Below, piece by piece: positions 1 to 54,882 of a stretch of 64,000 nt of DNA. The notes under the pieces are model-generated. The model made no database searches. It was not told the origin of the DNA and was given only the letters and a program-made list of their open reading frames with translations. Position 1 is the first letter of the stretch. Each line of letters starts with the position of its first letter. Position numbers and translations under genes: made by a program. Origin of the DNA: Butyriboletus loyo (taxonomy: Eukaryota; Basidiomycota; Agaricomycetes; Boletales; Boletaceae); the NCBI GenBank assembly GCA_038093515.1, contig JBBPSI010000075.1:1-64000 (forward strand). Reading direction: 5' to 3'.

Positions 1-844
1 GAGCCTCGATTTCCCAATCTTCTAAGGCAGCTAGAGCTAAGAGAATTCTAACGGTTTCAAACCTGGCAACTGGTGAGAAGGTTTCCTCATAATCAATTCC
101 GAAGATTTGGGTAAAGCCTTTTGCTACCCAGCGAGACTTGTATCGTCCATTGCTTTTTCGTACATTTATCCATTTCCCTTTAATGACTTGACGTCCCTTG
201 GGAAGATCTACCAGATCCCATACTCGTCGTTCTTGAAACGACTTGTATTCCTCTCCCATGGCGGTTAACCATAAGGATCTCTCGGCAGGAGGTAATCTCA
301 TTACTGCCTTGTGAGACTGTGGGATACCATCGACAGTAGCAGCAGCTAGAAGAGATTTAATCCACTTAGCGCTGTACATCTGTCCTAAGTCATCTTCTTC
401 ATTCGTGGGTCTCGGTTGATTAACCGGTTGTGGAGTAGGAATTAACTCCTCCTGAATAGGATCCAGTCCTCGATGTATCTCTCGTTCTATCTCGATCGGA
501 GGTCGATTCCCATAAGCATTATCTGGGACAATCCGTGGAACACGGATGCGAGTAGGACGAGGATTAAAGTCCTGACCAGTCTGCAAGAAATCTGGATCAT
601 TGATTGTTGGGATCGGAGCACCTTGAGATCGTAAATCCTGATCGAACTCATCATATAAGTCACGTTGGTGACCTCGAGCACGAATATCTCGAGTCGGATG
701 ATGTTGATGAGGACGATTGCGAAATTCAGTGATTCGTTCAGGATATACTCTTGTTGGAGGTAAGAAAGTGGAAGGACGAATCCGACCAGGATCTTCGAAT
801 GTTTCCAAAGTAAGGTAATGCTTACCAGCTGAGGATATCAAAAT
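1..844 (-). mobile_element. Ty1/copia retrotransposon pol fragment (start of reverse transcriptase)
   Basis: On the minus strand one frame stays open for about 281 codons, from a TGA at 847-845 down to the window edge, where it runs out. The last third matches the copia RT start: a W-D-L-V-D-L-P-K-G motif, then KWINVRKSNGRYKSRWVAKG and GIDYEETFSPVARFETVRIL in order. The upstream 150 codons are the proline- and arginine-rich spacer usual between integrase and RT. No integrase, protease, gag or LTR lies upstream, so the element is 5'-truncated at about 844 or entered by splicing. The frame is undamaged, which suggests it is young or constrained. A good acceptor (CCTCAG at 834-829) lies just inside it, in register with the upstream GTPase gene. 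Confidence 0.9.
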
Positions 845-3800
845 TCAAGGAATTATAGATTTTTGTGGGATTTGGTATGGTGAAATAACAAGTTCAATGA
901 GTAGAATGCAGATTTGCTGCATTATATCACCAACATTCTATTTTTGAAGAAAGAGTTAGGGAGAGGCATGTATGTATTAATGATCCACATTGTTCATGCA
1001 TATTAAATCATTTACCTCCTATGAAAATAAAATTTGATATTAATTGATCAATCACATTCTTGCTGTGATTTCAGGGCAGATCACTTACTTCCTATAGATA
1101 GAAAGGCAGTAAAGGAAATGAACATAAATTGATCAACAATCAGCATGCACTTGCTCATGCTTACAAAAGCACTTACAAACTATCAGTCATGGCAGCAGAA
1201 AGGATGGAAAGAAATCATTAGTAGTCTCATCAAATTCATACTAGACCACTTACAGCCTTCCAAGGGAAGGTAGCAGGAGATATGCTGATCAGCAGCATTC
1301 TCATTTCAAACCCATATCAAATTACTTACTTCCTATTGATGGGAATAGCAGGAGACATGTTCATCAGTAGCATTCTTGTTTTAAATTCACTTCAGATCAC
1401 TTACAAGCTATCAATTAGAGAGCAGCAAGATTGATCAGCAGCATTCCCATTTTGAATCCACATAGTAAGACCACTTACTCCCTATCAATGGGAGAGCAGC
1501 AAAAGGCAGGCTCATTATTAGCATTCTCATTTCAAAGCCACATCAGACCACTTACTTCCTATCAATGGGAAAGTAGCAGGAGGCATGCTAATCAGCAACA
1601 TTCTTTTTTCAAACCCACATCAGACCACTTACTTGCTAGTAATGGGAGACCAGCAGAAAGCATGCTCATCAGTAGTTTTCTTGTTTCAATCAAATTTATA
1701 TCAGACCACTTACTTGCTATCAATGAAAGAGTAGCAGAGACATGCTCATTAGCAATATTCCCATTCAAATCCACATCAAATTGCTTACAAACTATCAATG
1801 GGAAATTAGCAGGGGGAATGTTCATTAGTGGCATCCTTATTTCAAATCAACATCAGACCACTTACTTGCTATTAATGGAAGAGTGGTAGAAGGCACATTG
1901 ATCAGAAGCATTCTCATTTTCAAACCATATCAAATCACTTACTTGCTATCAAGGAAAGAGCAGTAGGAGGCACATTCATCATCAATATTCTCATTTCAAA
2001 TTCATATCAGACCACTTACTTGCTATCAATAGGATCACAGCAAGAGGCAAGCTCATCAGTAATATTTTCATTTAATCCATATAGACCACTTACTCGCTAT
2101 CAATGGGAGAGCAACAGAAAGCAGGCCCATCAGGTATTCTTTTTTCATAATGACATTGGAACACTTACAAACTATCAATGGAAAGCATGGAACAAAGATC
2201 CATGATTAACACTTTCCTTGAAAATGCATATCTGATCACTTACAAGCTATTGTTGGAATAGCAGTAAAAGTTATCAATAAAATTTCAGTTTTTATCCATA
2301 CCCTGACTTACTAGCTTTACATCCAATAATAGTTATAAATGGATATGAAACTCTCAGTTTTGTGCCTTCTATATGTATATCAGACCACCTACTCCCTAAT
2401 ATGTTATAATGAAACAAATATCAATTTATCAGTCACTTCTGAATACATTTCAGATCACTTACTGCCTGATAAGAAAGTGATAGCAGTATACATGAAATAA
2501 ATCCATCATGCTCATTTGCATGTATTTCTGTATGACTTACTCCCTTTGAATAATAAACATTTAATCAGTAACACTCTTATTCAAGTATTCATGAGATTAC
2601 TCACTTGCTATTAACACAAGAGCAGTAGAATAGGTAAATATGAATTCATCAATATCATTCTTGTTTTGATGCACCACTTACATGCTGCCATTGTAGTCAA
2701 GTGTGAGTTTATCATCATTTTTATAAATAATATATCACACACTTTCTATATAGAAAGAATCAAAACATCAGTCAATAAGCTCTTTTTTGAATTAATGTCT
2801 CAATAATTACCTAATCAATGATCCACCAATATCATTTAAGCATACAATCAATTTTTATCTTCATAAATTATTGTCCTGAAAAATCTTACCTGTGTGTGTG
2901 GAAACCAACTTGCCAATGCCCCAACTAGATCAAGATCTTCATTGTGAGTGAGCCTAAAGTCAACATAAGGCACCAATGCACTTCATGGCATCAATACACA
3001 CATCCTTTACAGTTAAAAACTATTTCACTTACCTTTTGACTGCATACCTAATGCATAGCAGAATATTCTTTTCCTGTGCTGTAACCAACAACATCTGCAA
3101 TGCTTCATTGTTCAATGCAGCAGCAGTCTGTTCCAGCAATGTGTTACAGTCTGCATCAGATGTATCCATGTCTAGCAATATCATTAATACCATGAAACAG
3201 ACATGAGAGCATATAAGTGTAAACAAACTTTCCAGTAGCACATATGCCTGTGGAGGAAATGTCATTTTGCACAAACTCCCCCATACATCTCTCTTGGCAA
3301 ATATCTCCTTGGTACGTTCTCTCTGCCTTGCAAGTTGATCTTCTAGAGGCAGTAGTAGTTCTTCAGGCTGGAATGCCTCCATCATGAGCAGATCACATTT
3401 AGTAAATAGCACTACAACTGGGACTAGCACCCAAACCAATGAGTTCAGAAAGTATCATCAAGAAGAATTGTTCACCAGTTCTAGTGTCACATTTACCGAA
3501 GAACCATTCCTCTGAAAAAGCAATAGCACGATGAAGTTGATCCATTGGAATACAATACCTGCCTATGTTAAAGCAGTCAGAACCAGCACAAAATGCCTGC
3601 TCACCATATGGCATGGATCCTCTTTTTGAGGAAAGTTGTATGTGCACGTTCTGCAATGAAGTCCTTTACCTTCTCATACTCGTCCTCGTGGCCAGCCTCG
3701 AAACCAGGAGAGTCATGGAAGACAAATTTCTGGTTGCTCTTAAAGACCATCTCATAATTGATATCATGGACTCCACGCTGTGAAAAGTGAGATGGATTGC

Positions 3801-4341
3801 AAAGATCCCAAGGTGACGCTCACTTCTCTGGTCCCCTGGATCACAAAATCAACCTGATCACATGTCGACGGCATTAGCATCCAACATACCCCAGCTTGGT
3901 CAACCGTACCTTTTTCCCTTCATGGTTGTAGATCTCCGGATCCTCTGTCGAGTTGCAGATTTTCTGAAGGATGGTCGTCTTGCCGGCATTCGCCCTGCCG
4001 ATGATGAGAATTCTAAATCGTCCGAATTTCTCCATGAGGTCCGGGTCAACGTCCTGCATGATGTCGGAATGGTCCGAAGCTTTCGACTGCGTGTTAGCAG
4101 TACTCGAGTTGTCGGAGCCTAACGTGAAAGAAACGAAATCTGTGACAGGTTTATCGGAATCTCTGCGCCGTGAGATAACATCGGGGTCTTTGGCCTGAGT
4201 CGGGAGACTTTTCGAGTCGGTGGGGACCGGGCTGGACTGCATGCTGCGTACATCGGAACCCTGGCCATGCCGCGGACACGAGTCTCTGCCGGCGAGGCGG
4301 GATCGGAGGTGTTTTAGTTTTCTCTTGATAGCAGCTTTCAT
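845..4341 (-). CDS. P-loop GTPase-like protein whose C-terminus appears to be encoded by single-codon exons
   Basis: Seven ordinary exons give an in-frame protein: complement of 3910-4341, 3824-3853, 3605-3777, 3497-3558, 3229-3423, 3033-3171 and 2890-2953 (1095 nt, 365 codons, ending in phase 0). Walker A is GRANAGKTT near residue 116. Downstream come FHDSPGFEAG (switch/Walker B region), YCIPMD and VVVLFTKCD (the TKxD guanine-specificity motif). These are hallmarks of the large agaricomycete P-loop NTPase family. After exon 7 a donor (GTAAGA, 2889-2884) leads into the 77-bp repeat array. Splicing each unit adds 24 single-codon exons (positions under the array entry) and a terminal exon 937-845 ending in TGA, for 419 aa. 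The conservative alternative is that the donor at 2889 is not used; the frame then stops at 2850-2848 and the array is 3' noncoding. I am confident of the GTPase. The tail is inferred from sequence only. Confidence 0.8.
938..2889 (-). repeat. Tandem array of ~75-bp intron-like units separated by single codons
   Basis: Read on the minus strand, each unit starts with a donor (GTAAGT in most; also GTAAGC, GTAGGT, GTGAGT, GTGTGT, GTAAAT). It continues with a branch-point match (CTAAT or CTGAT) about 30-35 nt before its end and a pyrimidine-rich stretch, and ends in AG, usually TTGATAG. Between that AG and the next GT there are always exactly 3 nt. Plus-strand positions of these triplets, in reading order, are 2743, 2682, 2605, 2541, 2463, 2393, 2312, 2244, 2169, 2094, 2020, 1943, 1866, 1789, 1714, 1633, 1556, 1479, 1405, 1330, 1254, 1177, 1089 and 1016 (lowest base of each). 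The triplets vary: CAA six times; GGA, TTT and GAA three each; CTT twice; and AAA, CAT, GCA, CTA, CGA, GCT, GAG once. None is a stop. Unit spacing varies from 61 to 88 bp while the slot stays at 3 nt. One further junction (2810/2811) has AG directly followed by GT. Confidence 0.9.
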
Positions 4342-20696: not shown

Positions 20697-20931
20697 TTAC
20701 CTGGCCGCCTGTGCGCGCTCTAACCGCTTGTCGACAACGACAGGTCGCCCATGCTTCGATTGCGCCAGATCAGACAGCCTGTTCTCGCGCATCCGCGTCA
20801 ACAGCTGGACGAGCATCAGCGGCGTCACCATGCCCACGCACTCCATCTTCCCCAGGTCCGCCCCTTCAGCAGGCGTCCCCACACAACTGTAACTATGGCT
20901 CCTACTCCGTTTCAGACTCCCCCTTGTCGTA

Positions 20932-20966
<35 letters not shown>

Positions 20967-29764: not shown

Positions 29765-29838
29765 GGTCTGATGGCGTAGTTGGTTATCGCATCTGTCTAA
29801 CACACAGAAGGTCTCCTGTTCGAGCCAGGGTCAGATCA
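29765..29838 (+). tRNA. tRNA-Val (anticodon AAC)
   Basis: The 74-nt cloverleaf is complete. The acceptor stem GGTCTGA pairs with TCAGATC (one G-T) and is followed by discriminator A. The D arm contains TAGTTGGTTA. The anticodon stem TCTGT/ACAGA encloses loop CTAACAC with anticodon AAC. The T arm is TCCTG-TTCGAGC-CAGGG. There is no intron. The A and B box promoters of RNA polymerase III lie inside the D and T arms as usual. Confidence 0.96.
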
Positions 29839-51913: not shown

Positions 51914-54882
51914 ATGGCACCAAGACTGAGCAAACGCCAACAACGAGAGCAAGAAGAACTCCTCGCGCTCAAACCTTCTCATGCATCCACAAGCACCGAC
52001 CAGCTCGAGTACAGTGAAGGAGAAGAGCCAGTGGCACCTGCAAAGGCTGGTTTCGCAGCAGTAAGTCTCACTCCGGAGACTGATGCGTGGAGATCGTGAC
52101 GATCAACCCAGCTTTTCACGCCAGAAGAGGAGCCGGAGGGTACAGAGAGCGGGGATGAAGACACCACGAGACCTGTCAAGTCTCGCAAGGTATGGGACCA
52201 AACCATTACGTGCATATACGGATCTCATCTTTCAGGCTATCAGGCGAAAAAAAGAAAGAAAAAGGGTACTGCTCCAGCTCACGACGACGAGGGTCTGCCA
52301 GCAGTAAAACCCGCTTCCCCACTGCCTCAAGCAGCTTCACGCCTCAAGCCTGTTTCGAAGAAGGCCAAAGTCAAAGACAAGAAGAAAGATGAGACAAACG
52401 ACTTGGACAGAGCCCTCGCGGAACTTTCCATCAAGTACGTCGTATCGGTTTTGGTCTTTCCCTCTATTATCTCATAGAATTCTTCAGGTATCCAGACCTT
52501 CAACAGACTGCGCTGAGTACCTCTACCGACACGCGGGCAACGAAACTTTCCGCCCTTTTCTCTGTTTCTGCTTCCCACCTTGATGCAGAGTCCGAGCTCA
52601 AGAAGTTCTTTGGCTCTAAAGCTGTCTCAGCTGCACAGGCCGACACATCTACATCGTCCCCCAACAAGAGACGTCGTGGGGTACAACCACAGTCACTGCG
52701 TTCTCAACTAACGCGCCCCCAGTCGTCCTGGGGTATGATTAAGCAACGGGAGGGCCTGTCAGCCCGACCACTCACGGACGAGGAGACAGTTAGGAAGACG
52801 AGCACGGGTCCGGCCGCCCATGGAAAGTGGTGGACAGTGGAGTACAGCAAGCGTTACAAAGGCGTCACAAAGACATTCATGCAGGCTGTTATGACTGGCG
52901 GTAGGTGTATATACGCGTCACGGTCGGTCATATCTCATAAGTATGATCGGTACAGACCCAGAGACATTCTGGCGGGTCATGCAGAGAATGCCTTGGCACG
53001 CAGATACGCTACTCCAACTTGCAGAAGTCTATCGACATCGTGAAGGTTTGTTGATCCGGATTTCGTATATCCATTCTCACTGAATATCACATTCTTCAGA
53101 GTACAGTCAGGCGGTGGACTACGTCTCACGAGCCCTTTATGCCTATGAGCGTGCCTTCATCGGTGCATTCAGTTTCACGAACGGAAGTAATAGACTCGAC
53201 TTTGATCGCGTGGAGAATAGACCATTCTTTCTTGCAATCCACAGACAAGTTATGTGAGCTAACTTGCAGGTTCTCGTTCCGTTGAACGAGCGCTCATCCC
53301 GTGCTTAGAGATCTGCAACGTCGCGGTTGTCCCCGAACAGCGTTTGAACACGCACGGCTACTCATCTCCCTCGAACCCCTGTCGGATCCCCACGGTGTCT
53401 GCTTACACCTCGACTATCTTTGCGTCAAGGCAGGCTTGGGTGATTGGTTGTTGGACGTGTGGACGGTTTACCGAAGCACATCTCATGGCGATTCGGGCGA
53501 GTATATAGACCCGAGCGTGTTACCTGGTTGGTCATATGCAAGAGCTTTGATTCTGAGAGCCAAGGAAAAGGAGAGGAAGAATCGAGGCGAGGTGCCAACG
53601 TTCTGTTGACCTTCGGACTATGTTTCTCACCATTTCCCTATTTTCCTTTAGGACGTCAAGGAGGAGAGTACAGAAGCGCTCCGACAAGCAATTCTTGCAT
53701 TTCCGTCGATAGTCCCCCTTCTAGCTGATAAATGCGAGATTTCACTCTCTGCAGATGTGCGAGGCCACAAGGCATTCCGCATTCACACGGATAGAATGTG
53801 GGTCCACGTTTTTCTAAGCTTATCGTAGGCTGACGATGCTCCAGTGGCCTGTCCCCTGAAGAAAGCATCCTCTATCTCCTTTCGTATCTCTACGTGCAAC
53901 GTTCCTCTCCACTCTGGAAGTCTTCTGGCCACGCTTTATGGCTTTCGAGCACAACAAACTCTCTTCTATCGACACTTTCCACCCAACGCACACATCCAAT
54001 CAGTGACCGATTCCTCCGTACCTTCTCCTCCCTCACCCTGCGGCACTCGATCTACCGCCACGTCTTCGTCCTCGAACAAACCCATGCTCAACCCCAAAAT
54101 CGCACTCTTACCGCTTTCATACCACCTGATATCACACAGGAACGACAGCTCGCATGCGATCCTCTTCCCCCACGTTCAGCCCTCTCGACGTACGACGCCG
54201 CCTTCTTCGCCGGTTCTGAAGACCCGTTTGCGCTCGGCGCGGCCCGTTCGCAGAGACGCACGCAAGCGGAGGAAAGAATGCTCGCGCGACTCATCCCCGA
54301 CGCTGCCACGCGCGCTCAGATTCTCGCATTCTTTGAGCAGAATCCGTGGCTTGTTGCACAGGTGCCGGGCGGAGTGGTCGAGTTCGTGCAAATGATGGCG
54401 GAGATGCCGGAGGATGCGCTGCAAGAATTGATGTTGGGCGCTGAGATGATGCGTGAGGCGGGTGCGGGTGCGGGTGCGGGTGCGGGTGCGGGTGCGGGTG
54501 CGGGTGCTGGTGCTGGTGTGCAACCAGGATTAGCAGATCGGGGAGCGATGCCCGGGGAGCTGCTGCCAGAAGAGGAAGAAGAGGTATTTTGGGAGGCAGA
54601 AGATAACGTGGATGACCTGCTACATGGCCAGCTGGGCCATCAAGGTGACAGAGTGGATACGGCGGACAATGAGGAAGAAGATGAGGAGGAGGAGGAGGAA
54701 GAAGAGGAAGTCATCTCCGTGAGTAATCTATCTCATATCTCCACACGGGGTTCTGTTTCTAAATTATAATGCTTCTCTAGCCGATGCCTATCCGCATGGT
54801 ACGCAACCTTCTCAACCGGCTTTGGGGAGGTACGCCGGCTCAGGAAGAATCGTCCGACGAAGACGGCGGCGATAGTGATTAG
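51914..54882 (+). CDS. RQC1: TCF25/Rqc1 homologue (ribosome quality control)
   Basis: The start MAPRLSKRQQREQEELLAL and the acidic segment GEEPVAPAKAGFAALFTPEE are typical of the family N-terminus, followed by a Lys-rich patch. The central domain is clear: MPWHADTLLQLAEVYRH, then VDYVSRALYAYERAFIGAF, NRPFFLAIHRQVMDLQRRGC and RTAFEHARLLISLEPLSDPH. The tail has acidic runs and ends PMPIRMVRNLLNRLWGGTP followed by an acidic terminus, as expected. In yeast Rqc1 works with Ltn1 and Cdc48 on stalled 60S-nascent chain complexes. Several short introns; exon limits between 53.0 and 53.9 kb are approximate. It contains an unstable Gly-Ala repeat, listed separately. Confidence 0.9.
54457..54517 (+). repeat. 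GGTGCG hexanucleotide repeat encoding Gly-Ala run
   Basis: About ten tandem copies of GCGGGT in frame give an alternating Ala-Gly stretch inside TCF25/Rqc1, between helical and acidic segments. Unit length is a multiple of three, so expansion keeps the frame. Confidence 0.9.

What the first reader, a model, noticed from the sequence alone, without database searches (positions are those of the whole stretch)
938..2889. Run of about 24 consecutive one-codon exons separated by repeated introns
Seen in the sequence (minus strand): in 24 successive units the distance between an acceptor-like AG and the next donor-like GT is exactly 3 nt. The length of the rest of the unit varies (58-85 nt) and the triplet itself varies (12 different codons, no stop). 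Each unit also has a CTAAT/CTGAT branch-point match and a pyrimidine tract, so it looks like a complete, normal-sized fungal intron. The upstream GTPase exons end in phase 0 exactly at the first donor, and a terminal exon in the right phase follows at usual spacing (78-nt intron, 937-845). If spliced, a stretch of protein is written one amino acid at a time, each codon bought with a ~75-nt intron. A simple minisatellite would not keep a 3-nt variable slot between invariant AG and GT while unit length drifts. I know of isolated 1-10 nt microexons in other eukaryotes but not of an array like this.
Basis: partly seen in the sequence, partly recalled or inferred. Interest (0 to 1): 0.97.

Follow-up and report, generated by a model that had tools for sequence, protein, structure and literature searches.

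The report
Fungal gene with single-codon exon array
In a bolete-type fungus, a family of GTPase genes appears to spell part of each protein one amino acid at a time, using dozens of 3-letter exons separated by near-copies of one intron, an arrangement reported before for an unrelated gene family in truffles.

Summary
On the minus strand, 24 consecutive AG-NNN-GT units run from 2745 to 1016, and two more follow (AAT 937-935, CTG 828-826). The proposed terminal exon 937-845 is wrong: it is a triplet plus most of an intron. Window 1 to about 806 is Copia sequence; the gene's 3' end lies on contig C395, identical over 1,454 nt. The array is not unique: 17 stretches of this 30-Mb genome carry arrays, all tied to one P-loop GTPase family of Boletales type. 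The slot stays 3 nt (AG exactly 3 nt upstream of 442 of 466 donor-like sites) while introns range from 50 to 107 nt. Exons on both sides are in phase and under purifying selection. In long arrays the introns are nearly identical, yet slot positions 1 and 2 are hypervariable. Intron-free database proteins, probably from transcripts, read through the array region in relatives and share its NL-type ending. I conclude these are spliced single-codon exons (0.82). No RNA from this organism was available, and slot bases are not conserved overall. The kind is not new: papers citing Iotti et al. 2012 describe dozens of 3-bp exons in truffle NACHT-ANK genes. This is a separate case in another phylum and protein family.

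The parts
3910..4341 (-). Exon 1 of the GTPase gene, from ATG, with the P-loop GRANAGKT
   Evidence: anchors and translation; homology to paralogs
3824..3853 (-). Exon 2
   Evidence: anchors
3605..3777 (-). Exon 3
   Evidence: anchors; dN/dS 0.12-0.26 in the C75 and C6 comparisons
3476..3558 (-). Exon 4
   Evidence: start, end by eye against the 83-nt exon of paralog C159b
3229..3423 (-). Exon 5
   Evidence: start, end by eye against the 195-nt exon of C159b
3033..3171 (-). Exon 6
   Evidence: end by eye
2890..2953 (-). Exon 7, last GTPase-side exon, ends in phase 0 (WFPHTQ)
2805..2812 (-). Zero-length acceptor/donor AG|GTAATT inside the intron region between exon 7 and the first triplet; possible splicing step without an exon
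   Evidence: 9 loci by pattern, C6 and C8 by eye; positions
1016..2745 (-). Main array: 24 one-codon exons AAA CAT CAA GGA GCA GGA CTA CTT TTT CGA CAA CAA CAA TTT CAA CAA GAA GGA CTT GAA GCT TTT GAA GAG (KHQGAGLLFRQQQFQQEGLEAFEE) with 23 introns of 58-85 nt between them
935..937 (-).
826..828 (-). 26th one-codon exon, CTG (L)
807..825 (-). Start of the intron after CTG; sequence shared with C395 stops about here
2..806 (-). Copia-type pol sequence (frame 2-844), not part of the gene: rearranged allele or assembly chimera

Best explanation
This is one member of an expanded P-loop GTPase family in a Boletales fungus. The linker between its GTPase part and a conserved C-terminal part is encoded by a tandem array of units, each a spliceosomal intron of about 72 nt plus a 3-nt phase-0 exon. 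Shown from sequence: the slot is kept at 3 nt, donor and acceptor signals are kept, the phase runs unbroken from GTPase exons to stop codon in an intact paralog, flanking exons are under purifying selection, and slot positions 1 and 2 are hypervariable between nearly identical introns. Inferred: introns are recognised one at a time by intron definition with strong GTAAGT donors, and each splicing event adds one codon to the growing exon. Unequal exchange copies and shuffles whole units. Because every unit is frame-safe, residues can be added, lost, swapped or skipped without shifting the frame. The result is a hypervariable peptide whose repeat scaffold is intron, not protein. The most likely role is a rapidly diversifying recognition or interaction segment, as in fungal immune-type receptors; that last step is analogy only (about 0.35).
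For: AG exactly 3 nt upstream of 442 of 466 donor-like sites found without using upstream sequence; longest chain in 1,000 shuffles 3, real 24. Paralog C159b reads ATG, seven exons, 42 triplets, 3' exons, stop, all in phase. C-terminal exon dN/dS 0.27-0.55 and exon 3 0.12-0.26 with C75 or C6, in the comparisons printed. No stop in 428 walked triplets, 13.1 expected if columns were independent. Array introns 50-107 nt; 309 of 409 donors GTAAGT; retention gives stop or frameshift in 397 of 409. Slot positions 1 and 2 pi 0.43-0.78 against intron mean 0.017-0.068. Residues N, L, D end the array in 11 of 11 arrays whose 3' end is covered (C8 by eye). Proteins P0003, P0121, P0004, P0009, P0068 from short intron-free contigs read through the region and end it with a similar NL motif. 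P0080, P0011, P0033 show array-like residues and then VS, as a retained GTAAGT would give.
Against: No RNA from this organism. Slot bases are not conserved overall: between the two subfamilies 12-15 of 27 slot bases differ, more than in introns. C75-C6 is lower (3 of 27 against 130 of 502) but only p=0.06. The stop test is weak for NNT triplets, which cannot be stops, and one stop occurs in a four-unit chain on C164 left out of the 428. Three arrays hold one slot of 1, 2 or 5 nt, which would shift the frame if used. That the jgi contigs are cDNA is inferred. C159a has an in-frame stop in a GTPase exon.
Confidence: 0.82

Rival explanations
1. The array is removed as one large intron, or in a few large steps; the triplets never reach the mRNA and the repeats are neutral or selfish.
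For: Skipping any or all units keeps the frame. Some annotated homologs (P0051, P0096, P0097, P0124) pass from WFPH to the C-terminal part with few or no residues between. Slot bases are not conserved overall.
Against: Nothing would then keep the slot at 3 nt or concentrate variation in slot positions 1 and 2. Intron-free proteins in relatives contain a variable stretch at this place with an NL ending as in the array.
Confidence: 0.1
2. The triplets are exons, but each is used optionally: in-frame alternative skipping makes many peptides from one gene, as described for Tuber nank genes.
For: All 3-nt exons are symmetrical. The Tuber precedent is described as alternative splicing (passages). 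P0080, P0011 and P0033 look like partly spliced products.
Against: No isoform data for one gene here; P0068 and P0153 differ in the variable stretch but may be different genes. This is a version of the best explanation, not its opposite.
Confidence: 0.4
3. Slot positions 1 and 2 are changed by a targeted mutation process rather than by selection.
For: Only positions 1 and 2 vary in the 75-nt units; position 3 has pi 0.00 in all five arrays measured. A seems rare at position 1 in the variable stretches (by eye).
Against: I know of no mechanism that aims at the two bases after an acceptor. Diversifying selection plus a donor constraint on position 3 would look the same. Not tested further.
Confidence: 0.12
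4. The tandem introns host small RNAs (snoRNA-type) and the exons are by-products.
For: Tandem introns with tiny exons resemble snoRNA host arrays (recalled).
Against: No Rfam family at gathering score except one tRNA elsewhere; in 800-3000 with relaxed threshold only one match at E 0.77, far under its gathering score. Flanking protein exons are conserved.
Confidence: 0.03
5. The arrays are decayed or dead repeats in pseudogenes.
For: C159a has an in-frame stop; LTR elements interrupt the C8 array and LTR-like ends follow the units in C46a, C337 and C351; the window copy joins Copia sequence.
Against: Purifying selection in flanking exons, kept donors, acceptors and slot length, and an uninterrupted model for C159b.
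Confidence: 0.06

Closest known systems
[quoted passage not shown] 2012; paper not held, known from passages in PMC4986451, PMC3689799, PMC10197012, PMC9815663)
   Same: Tens to dozens of 3-bp exons in an expanded family of nucleotide-binding proteins; expected in-frame diversification of a region near the C-terminus
   Different: Ascomycete, NACHT and ankyrin domains, alternative splicing reported; here a Boletales GTPase family without NACHT or ANK matches. Whether the truffle introns are tandem near-copies with a hypervariable slot I could not check
Schistosome micro-exon genes (PMC4350168, passages; DeMarco et al. 2010 cited there)
   Same: Many tiny symmetrical exons that allow in-frame protein variation
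   Different: Most of the coding region there is small exons; here 42 of 522 residues in C159b, every array exon exactly one codon
Fungal NLR genes with hypervariable WD, ANK or TPR repeats (PMC4986451, passages)
   Same: Highly similar tandem repeats with few variable sites and repeat exchange
   Different: There the repeat is translated; here all but one codon per repeat would be spliced out
Single-nucleotide exon of Arabidopsis APC11 (PMC4674806, abstract and first paragraphs)
   Same: Shows that a very small exon can be spliced constitutively
   Different: One isolated exon, not an array

Membership tests
Tuber-type nank codon-microexon genes | Tens of 3-nt exons in tandem | tested here: met
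   At sequence level only:
Tuber-type nank codon-microexon genes | NACHT domain and ankyrin repeats | tested here: not met
   Pfam scan of the C159b model up to E 0.1 lists GTPase and other P-loop families, no NACHT or ANK
Tuber-type nank codon-microexon genes | Alternative splicing of the microexons | not testable with these tools
   No RNA data for this genome
P-loop GTPase of the MMR_HSR1 type | Pfam PF01926 above its curated cut-off | tested here: met
   23.9 bits against a cut-off of 21.9, residues 110-217 of the C159b model
Schistosome micro-exon genes | Most of the coding region in very small symmetrical exons | tested here: not met
   42 of 522 residues in the C159b model
Fungal NLR with translated WD, ANK or TPR repeats | Repeat unit translated as a WD, ANK or TPR motif | tested here: not met
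   No such Pfam match up to E 0.1; the unit is an intron plus one codon
Tandem snoRNA host introns | Recognisable snoRNA in the introns | tested here: not met
   Rfam

The most novel reading that the evidence does not exclude
A genome-encoded diversity system in which each tandem repeat carries one interchangeable codon and the repeat scaffold is removed by splicing. Unequal exchange, selected or targeted change of two slot bases, and in-frame skipping together let one GTPase gene write almost any peptide of tens of residues, used by mushrooms to recognise self, partners or invaders.
Probability: 0.3. Interest if true: 0.92.

Novelty: new variant of a known kind. Interest (0 to 1): 0.74.

Why it matters
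If the triplets are spliced as read, codon-sized exon arrays occur in two fungal phyla in unrelated nucleotide-binding protein families, which suggests a general way to diversify proteins. Such arrays also defeat gene prediction: of 141 held homologs with the WFPH-like motif, 112 end within 60 residues after it, so many members of a large Boletales family are probably mis-annotated. They also test how small an exon can be under intron definition, and offer a natural experiment in which the codon varies while its intron stays nearly constant.

Tried and rejected
Purifying selection on slot bases as general proof of coding: rejected. Triplets change as fast as or faster than introns between the two subfamilies; fewer changes were seen only for C75-C6 (p=0.06). 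For the N-L-D units (0-1 of 9 bases differ against 31-33% of intron bases, p 0.04-0.16) my search pattern itself fixed those codons, so that test is partly circular and I give it little weight; the unconditional walks and a reading by eye show N, L, D in 11 of 11 arrays whose 3' end is covered, while C75 and C111 show N and L before they are cut off. Non-coding RNA host: rejected. Spread of the unit in viral contigs: four single matches, longest chain 1, taken as chance. Window 937-845 as terminal exon: rejected. Arrays in more distant GTPase loci of the same genome: none in the stretches fetched for C20, C385, C209, C31 and C218 (5 of 5; longest chain 1-2 on either strand); C107, C146 and C274 are partial copies, also without a chain.

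Rows dropped: the C164 chain of four triplets, one a stop, was left out of the 428 walked triplets and not examined further. The 501 chain triplets also include four on C395 beyond the gene. The walk stops early at odd units, so C6, C111, C149, C158 and C254 are counted only in part there and in the 409 introns. All these patterns need a GT donor and miss GC donors; one is seen in C8. The pi values use only units with a 72-nt intron and a set motif (8-19 units in each of five arrays; C411 had 3 and was skipped). One search printed only comparisons involving C6, C75 or C395, plus C159b with C149, C46b or C411 where the order allowed, and left out gapped or short matches. The 201 proteins are only those listed by three searches (best 120 of 465, 2 of 2, best 120 of 157).

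Full report
WHAT IS IN THE WINDOW. The minus strand carries a P-loop GTPase gene whose exons run from 4341 to 2890. The last of these, ending in WFPHTQ, stops in phase 0 at a donor at 2889. After it come 24 triplets, each between an acceptor-like AG and a donor-like GT, from 2745 to 1016, and two more at 937-935 (AAT) and 828-826 (CTG). In order they would read KHQGAGLLFRQQQFQQEGLEAFEENL. In 1,000 dinucleotide shuffles the longest chain was at most 3, so the pattern is not chance.

THE 3' END. From about 807 down to 1 the window is Copia-type reverse transcriptase sequence (open frame 281 aa; Pfam RVT_2). Contig C395 is identical to this contig over 1,454 nt. It then continues with triplets GAT and AAA, further exons read by eye and the family's C-terminal exon. 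Window position 1 is the contig end and I recognised no LTR at the junction, so this is either a rearranged allele or an assembly chimera; I could not tell which.

A GENE FAMILY, NOT AN ISOLATED CASE. The genome (G000, 30.3 Mb in 420 contigs) holds 200 matches to the unit core with up to 3 mismatches, against 1 for the reversed control pattern. A looser two-unit pattern gives 265 against 7; in both calls only part of the places was listed. I fetched 30 stretches. Arrays lie on C75, C6, C395, C8, C46 (two), C111, C149, C152, C158, C159 (two), C254, C337, C233, C351 and C411: 17 stretches, several cut by contig ends. Twelve have GTPase exons upstream and five (C395, C158, C254, C233, C411) only the family's C-terminal exon downstream. 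Two subfamilies are visible: C75, C395 and C6; and the rest, with RGLGREKFLIQDDF-like starts and AQEDFARNLD-like ends. Between conserved ends lies a variable middle. Five more distant GTPase loci have no array in the stretches fetched. The best named relatives are Boletales (Butyriboletus roseoflavus 67% identity, then Imleria, Chiua, Rhizopogon, Boletus), so the organism is probably a bolete relative; this is inference.

THE SLOT. Donor-like sites were located without using upstream sequence: 466 sites, of which 442 have AG exactly 3 nt upstream. The other 24 are, by eye, mostly ordinary introns or unrelated sites. Inside arrays I count three odd slots, of 1 nt (C111), 2 nt (C149) and 5 nt (C254). 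A fourth, on C8, is explained by an LTR retrotransposon inserted at the slot (LTR match 428 nt, 97.4% identical, with a short target duplication read by eye); without it the slot would be 3 nt. One further unit on C8 uses a GC donor. Array introns counted range from 50 to 107 nt, median 72; 309 of 409 donors are GTAAGT and 312 of 409 acceptors TAG. Retaining an intron gives a stop or frameshift in 397 of 409 cases, whereas adding or losing a whole unit keeps the frame.

IS IT CODING? In favour: the paralog C159b can be read from ATG through seven exons, 42 triplets and the 3' exons to a stop codon, all in phase. In the comparisons printed, the C-terminal exon has dN/dS 0.27-0.55, exon 3 0.12-0.26 (one pair with no replacement change), exon 5 0.24-0.45 and exon 6 0.15-0.76. 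The C-terminal frame can be used only if the stop-rich introns are removed. No stop occurs among 428 walked triplets (13.1 expected if columns were independent), and 1 among 501 in the wider chain set, in a four-unit chain on C164 that I left out. This test is weak for NNT triplets, which cannot be stops. Against: slot bases are not conserved as a whole. Between subfamilies 12-15 of 27 differ, more than in introns (28-30%). C75 and C6 differ at 3 of 27 against 130 of 502 intron bases (p=0.06). Residues N, L, D end the array in 11 of 11 arrays whose 3' end is covered. One search compared them formally, but its pattern fixed those codons, so its p values (0.04-0.16) carry little weight.

EVIDENCE FROM RELATIVES. 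Several jgi-sourced proteins come from contigs not much longer than their reading frames (P0003: 438 aa on 1,529 nt; P0121: 298 aa on 1,094 nt), although the genes here have many introns. They are most likely spliced transcripts; this is inference, and their DNA could not be fetched. They run from WFPH through a variable stretch to the conserved C-terminal part. Their variable stretches end much like the array: P0121 NQLMNNLDE, P0003 FEFANLDRAV, P0004 DFKNLTE, P0009 DFMNLLK, P0068 DFDHNLFNG, against EDFARNLDR in C159b and FEENLDK in C395. P0068 and P0153 are nearly identical after the variable stretch but differ in its length and content. P0080, P0011 and P0033 show 23, 8 and 9 residues after WFPHFW or WFPQFW and then VS, which is what a retained GTAAGT would give. 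P0080's first 22 and P0056's 26 residues there contain none of K, E, Q, M, W (residues that NNT codons cannot give), against a background of 22%; P0111 has 1 of 43, P0011 1 of 8 and P0033 0 of 9 (the segments were chosen by eye). Of 201 held proteins 141 contain a WFPH-like motif; 112 of these end within 60 residues, and 82 of the 112 have V[RSK] within 12 residues after it, against 7.4% in random windows of the same proteins. I read this as gene models running into the first array intron. Some models (P0051, P0096, P0097, P0124) instead pass to the C-terminal part with little or nothing between, which fits skipping or absence of an array.

HYPERVARIABLE CODONS IN NEAR-IDENTICAL INTRONS. In C111, C149, C159a, C159b and C46b I compared units with 72-nt introns (19, 17, 13, 11 and 8 units). 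Slot position 1 has pi 0.43-0.75, position 2 0.64-0.78, position 3 0.00; the intron mean is 0.017-0.068. In 4 of the 5 arrays the two slot positions are the most variable of all 75; in C46b position 2 is, while position 1 is not among the top five. In C111 blocks of several units recur (for example the codons for PPGF), which suggests exchange of multi-unit blocks. Among nine loci of the larger subfamily, units 1-14, all codon differences counted were replacements, none synonymous.

HOW IT PROBABLY WORKS. Fungal introns are short and are thought to be recognised by intron definition (established knowledge, recalled), so a 3-nt exon need not be recognised itself. Each intron would be removed between its own GTAAGT and TAG, and each event adds one codon to the upstream exon. 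A zero-length site, AG|GTAATT, lies between the last GTPase exon and the first triplet at 9 loci by pattern and in C6 and C8 by eye, that is 11 of 12 loci with that side; on C351 the exon motif was not found. It may be a splicing step without an exon. Conserved end codons and a changeable middle suggest a linker whose ends matter for the fold and whose middle makes contact with something. A recognition role is an analogy with fungal immune-type receptors, not a result.

WHAT IS KNOWN. The listings of ten literature searches showed no such array in a basidiomycete or a GTPase; several listings were capped and I opened only a few papers. But passages in four papers (PMC4986451, PMC3689799, PMC10197012, PMC9815663) report, citing Iotti et al. 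2012, that Tuber melanosporum NACHT-ANK genes have tens to dozens of 3-bp exons whose alternative splicing diversifies the proteins. I could not read Iotti et al. itself. The present genes share that architecture but not the protein family, so I file this as a new variant of a known kind. Schistosome micro-exon genes (passages) and the single-nucleotide exon of Arabidopsis (abstract and opening) are more distant parallels. [quoted passage not shown]

LIMITS. No transcript of this organism was available. The assembly breaks at several arrays. The status of the jgi contigs as cDNA is inferred. The evidence that the slot is coding rests on slot length, phase, ends shared with relatives and lack of stops, not on slowed evolution.

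Noticed in passing
window 2-844 (minus strand): Copia-type pol frame running off the contig start, joined to the array at about 807 with no LTR recognised at the junction; C395 continues the gene instead.
   Followed up: partly
L010/L023 (contig C8), L011 (C46), L021 (C337), L025 (C351): Arrays are interrupted by LTR-type insertions: a full element with 428-nt LTR match on C8, and TGTTA-type ends directly after array units on the other three (the last three by eye). Arrays may be insertion hot spots.
   Followed up: partly
window 2805-2812 and paralogs: Conserved zero-length acceptor/donor AG|GTAATT before the first codon exon.
   Followed up: partly
L017 (C159, first array): In-frame stop in the fifth GTPase exon, so this copy may be a pseudogene.
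   Followed up: no
L013 (C111), L014 (C149), L020 (C254): Single units with a slot of 1, 2 or 5 nt, which would shift the frame unless the unit is skipped.
   Followed up: no
L019 (C164): Four-unit chain with one stop triplet beside matches to the unit core.
   Followed up: no
P0024 (Boletus edulis protein): Its end reads like two copies of one intron start in different frames, about 91 nt apart by back-translation by hand, hinting at tandem introns with a longer slot in Boletus.
   Followed up: no
window 20926-20966 and 54458-54518: Tandem hexamer repeats GTCGTG and GCGGGT.
   Followed up: no
window 29765-29838 (plus strand): tRNA-Val (AAC), the only tRNA gene found in the window.
   Followed up: no
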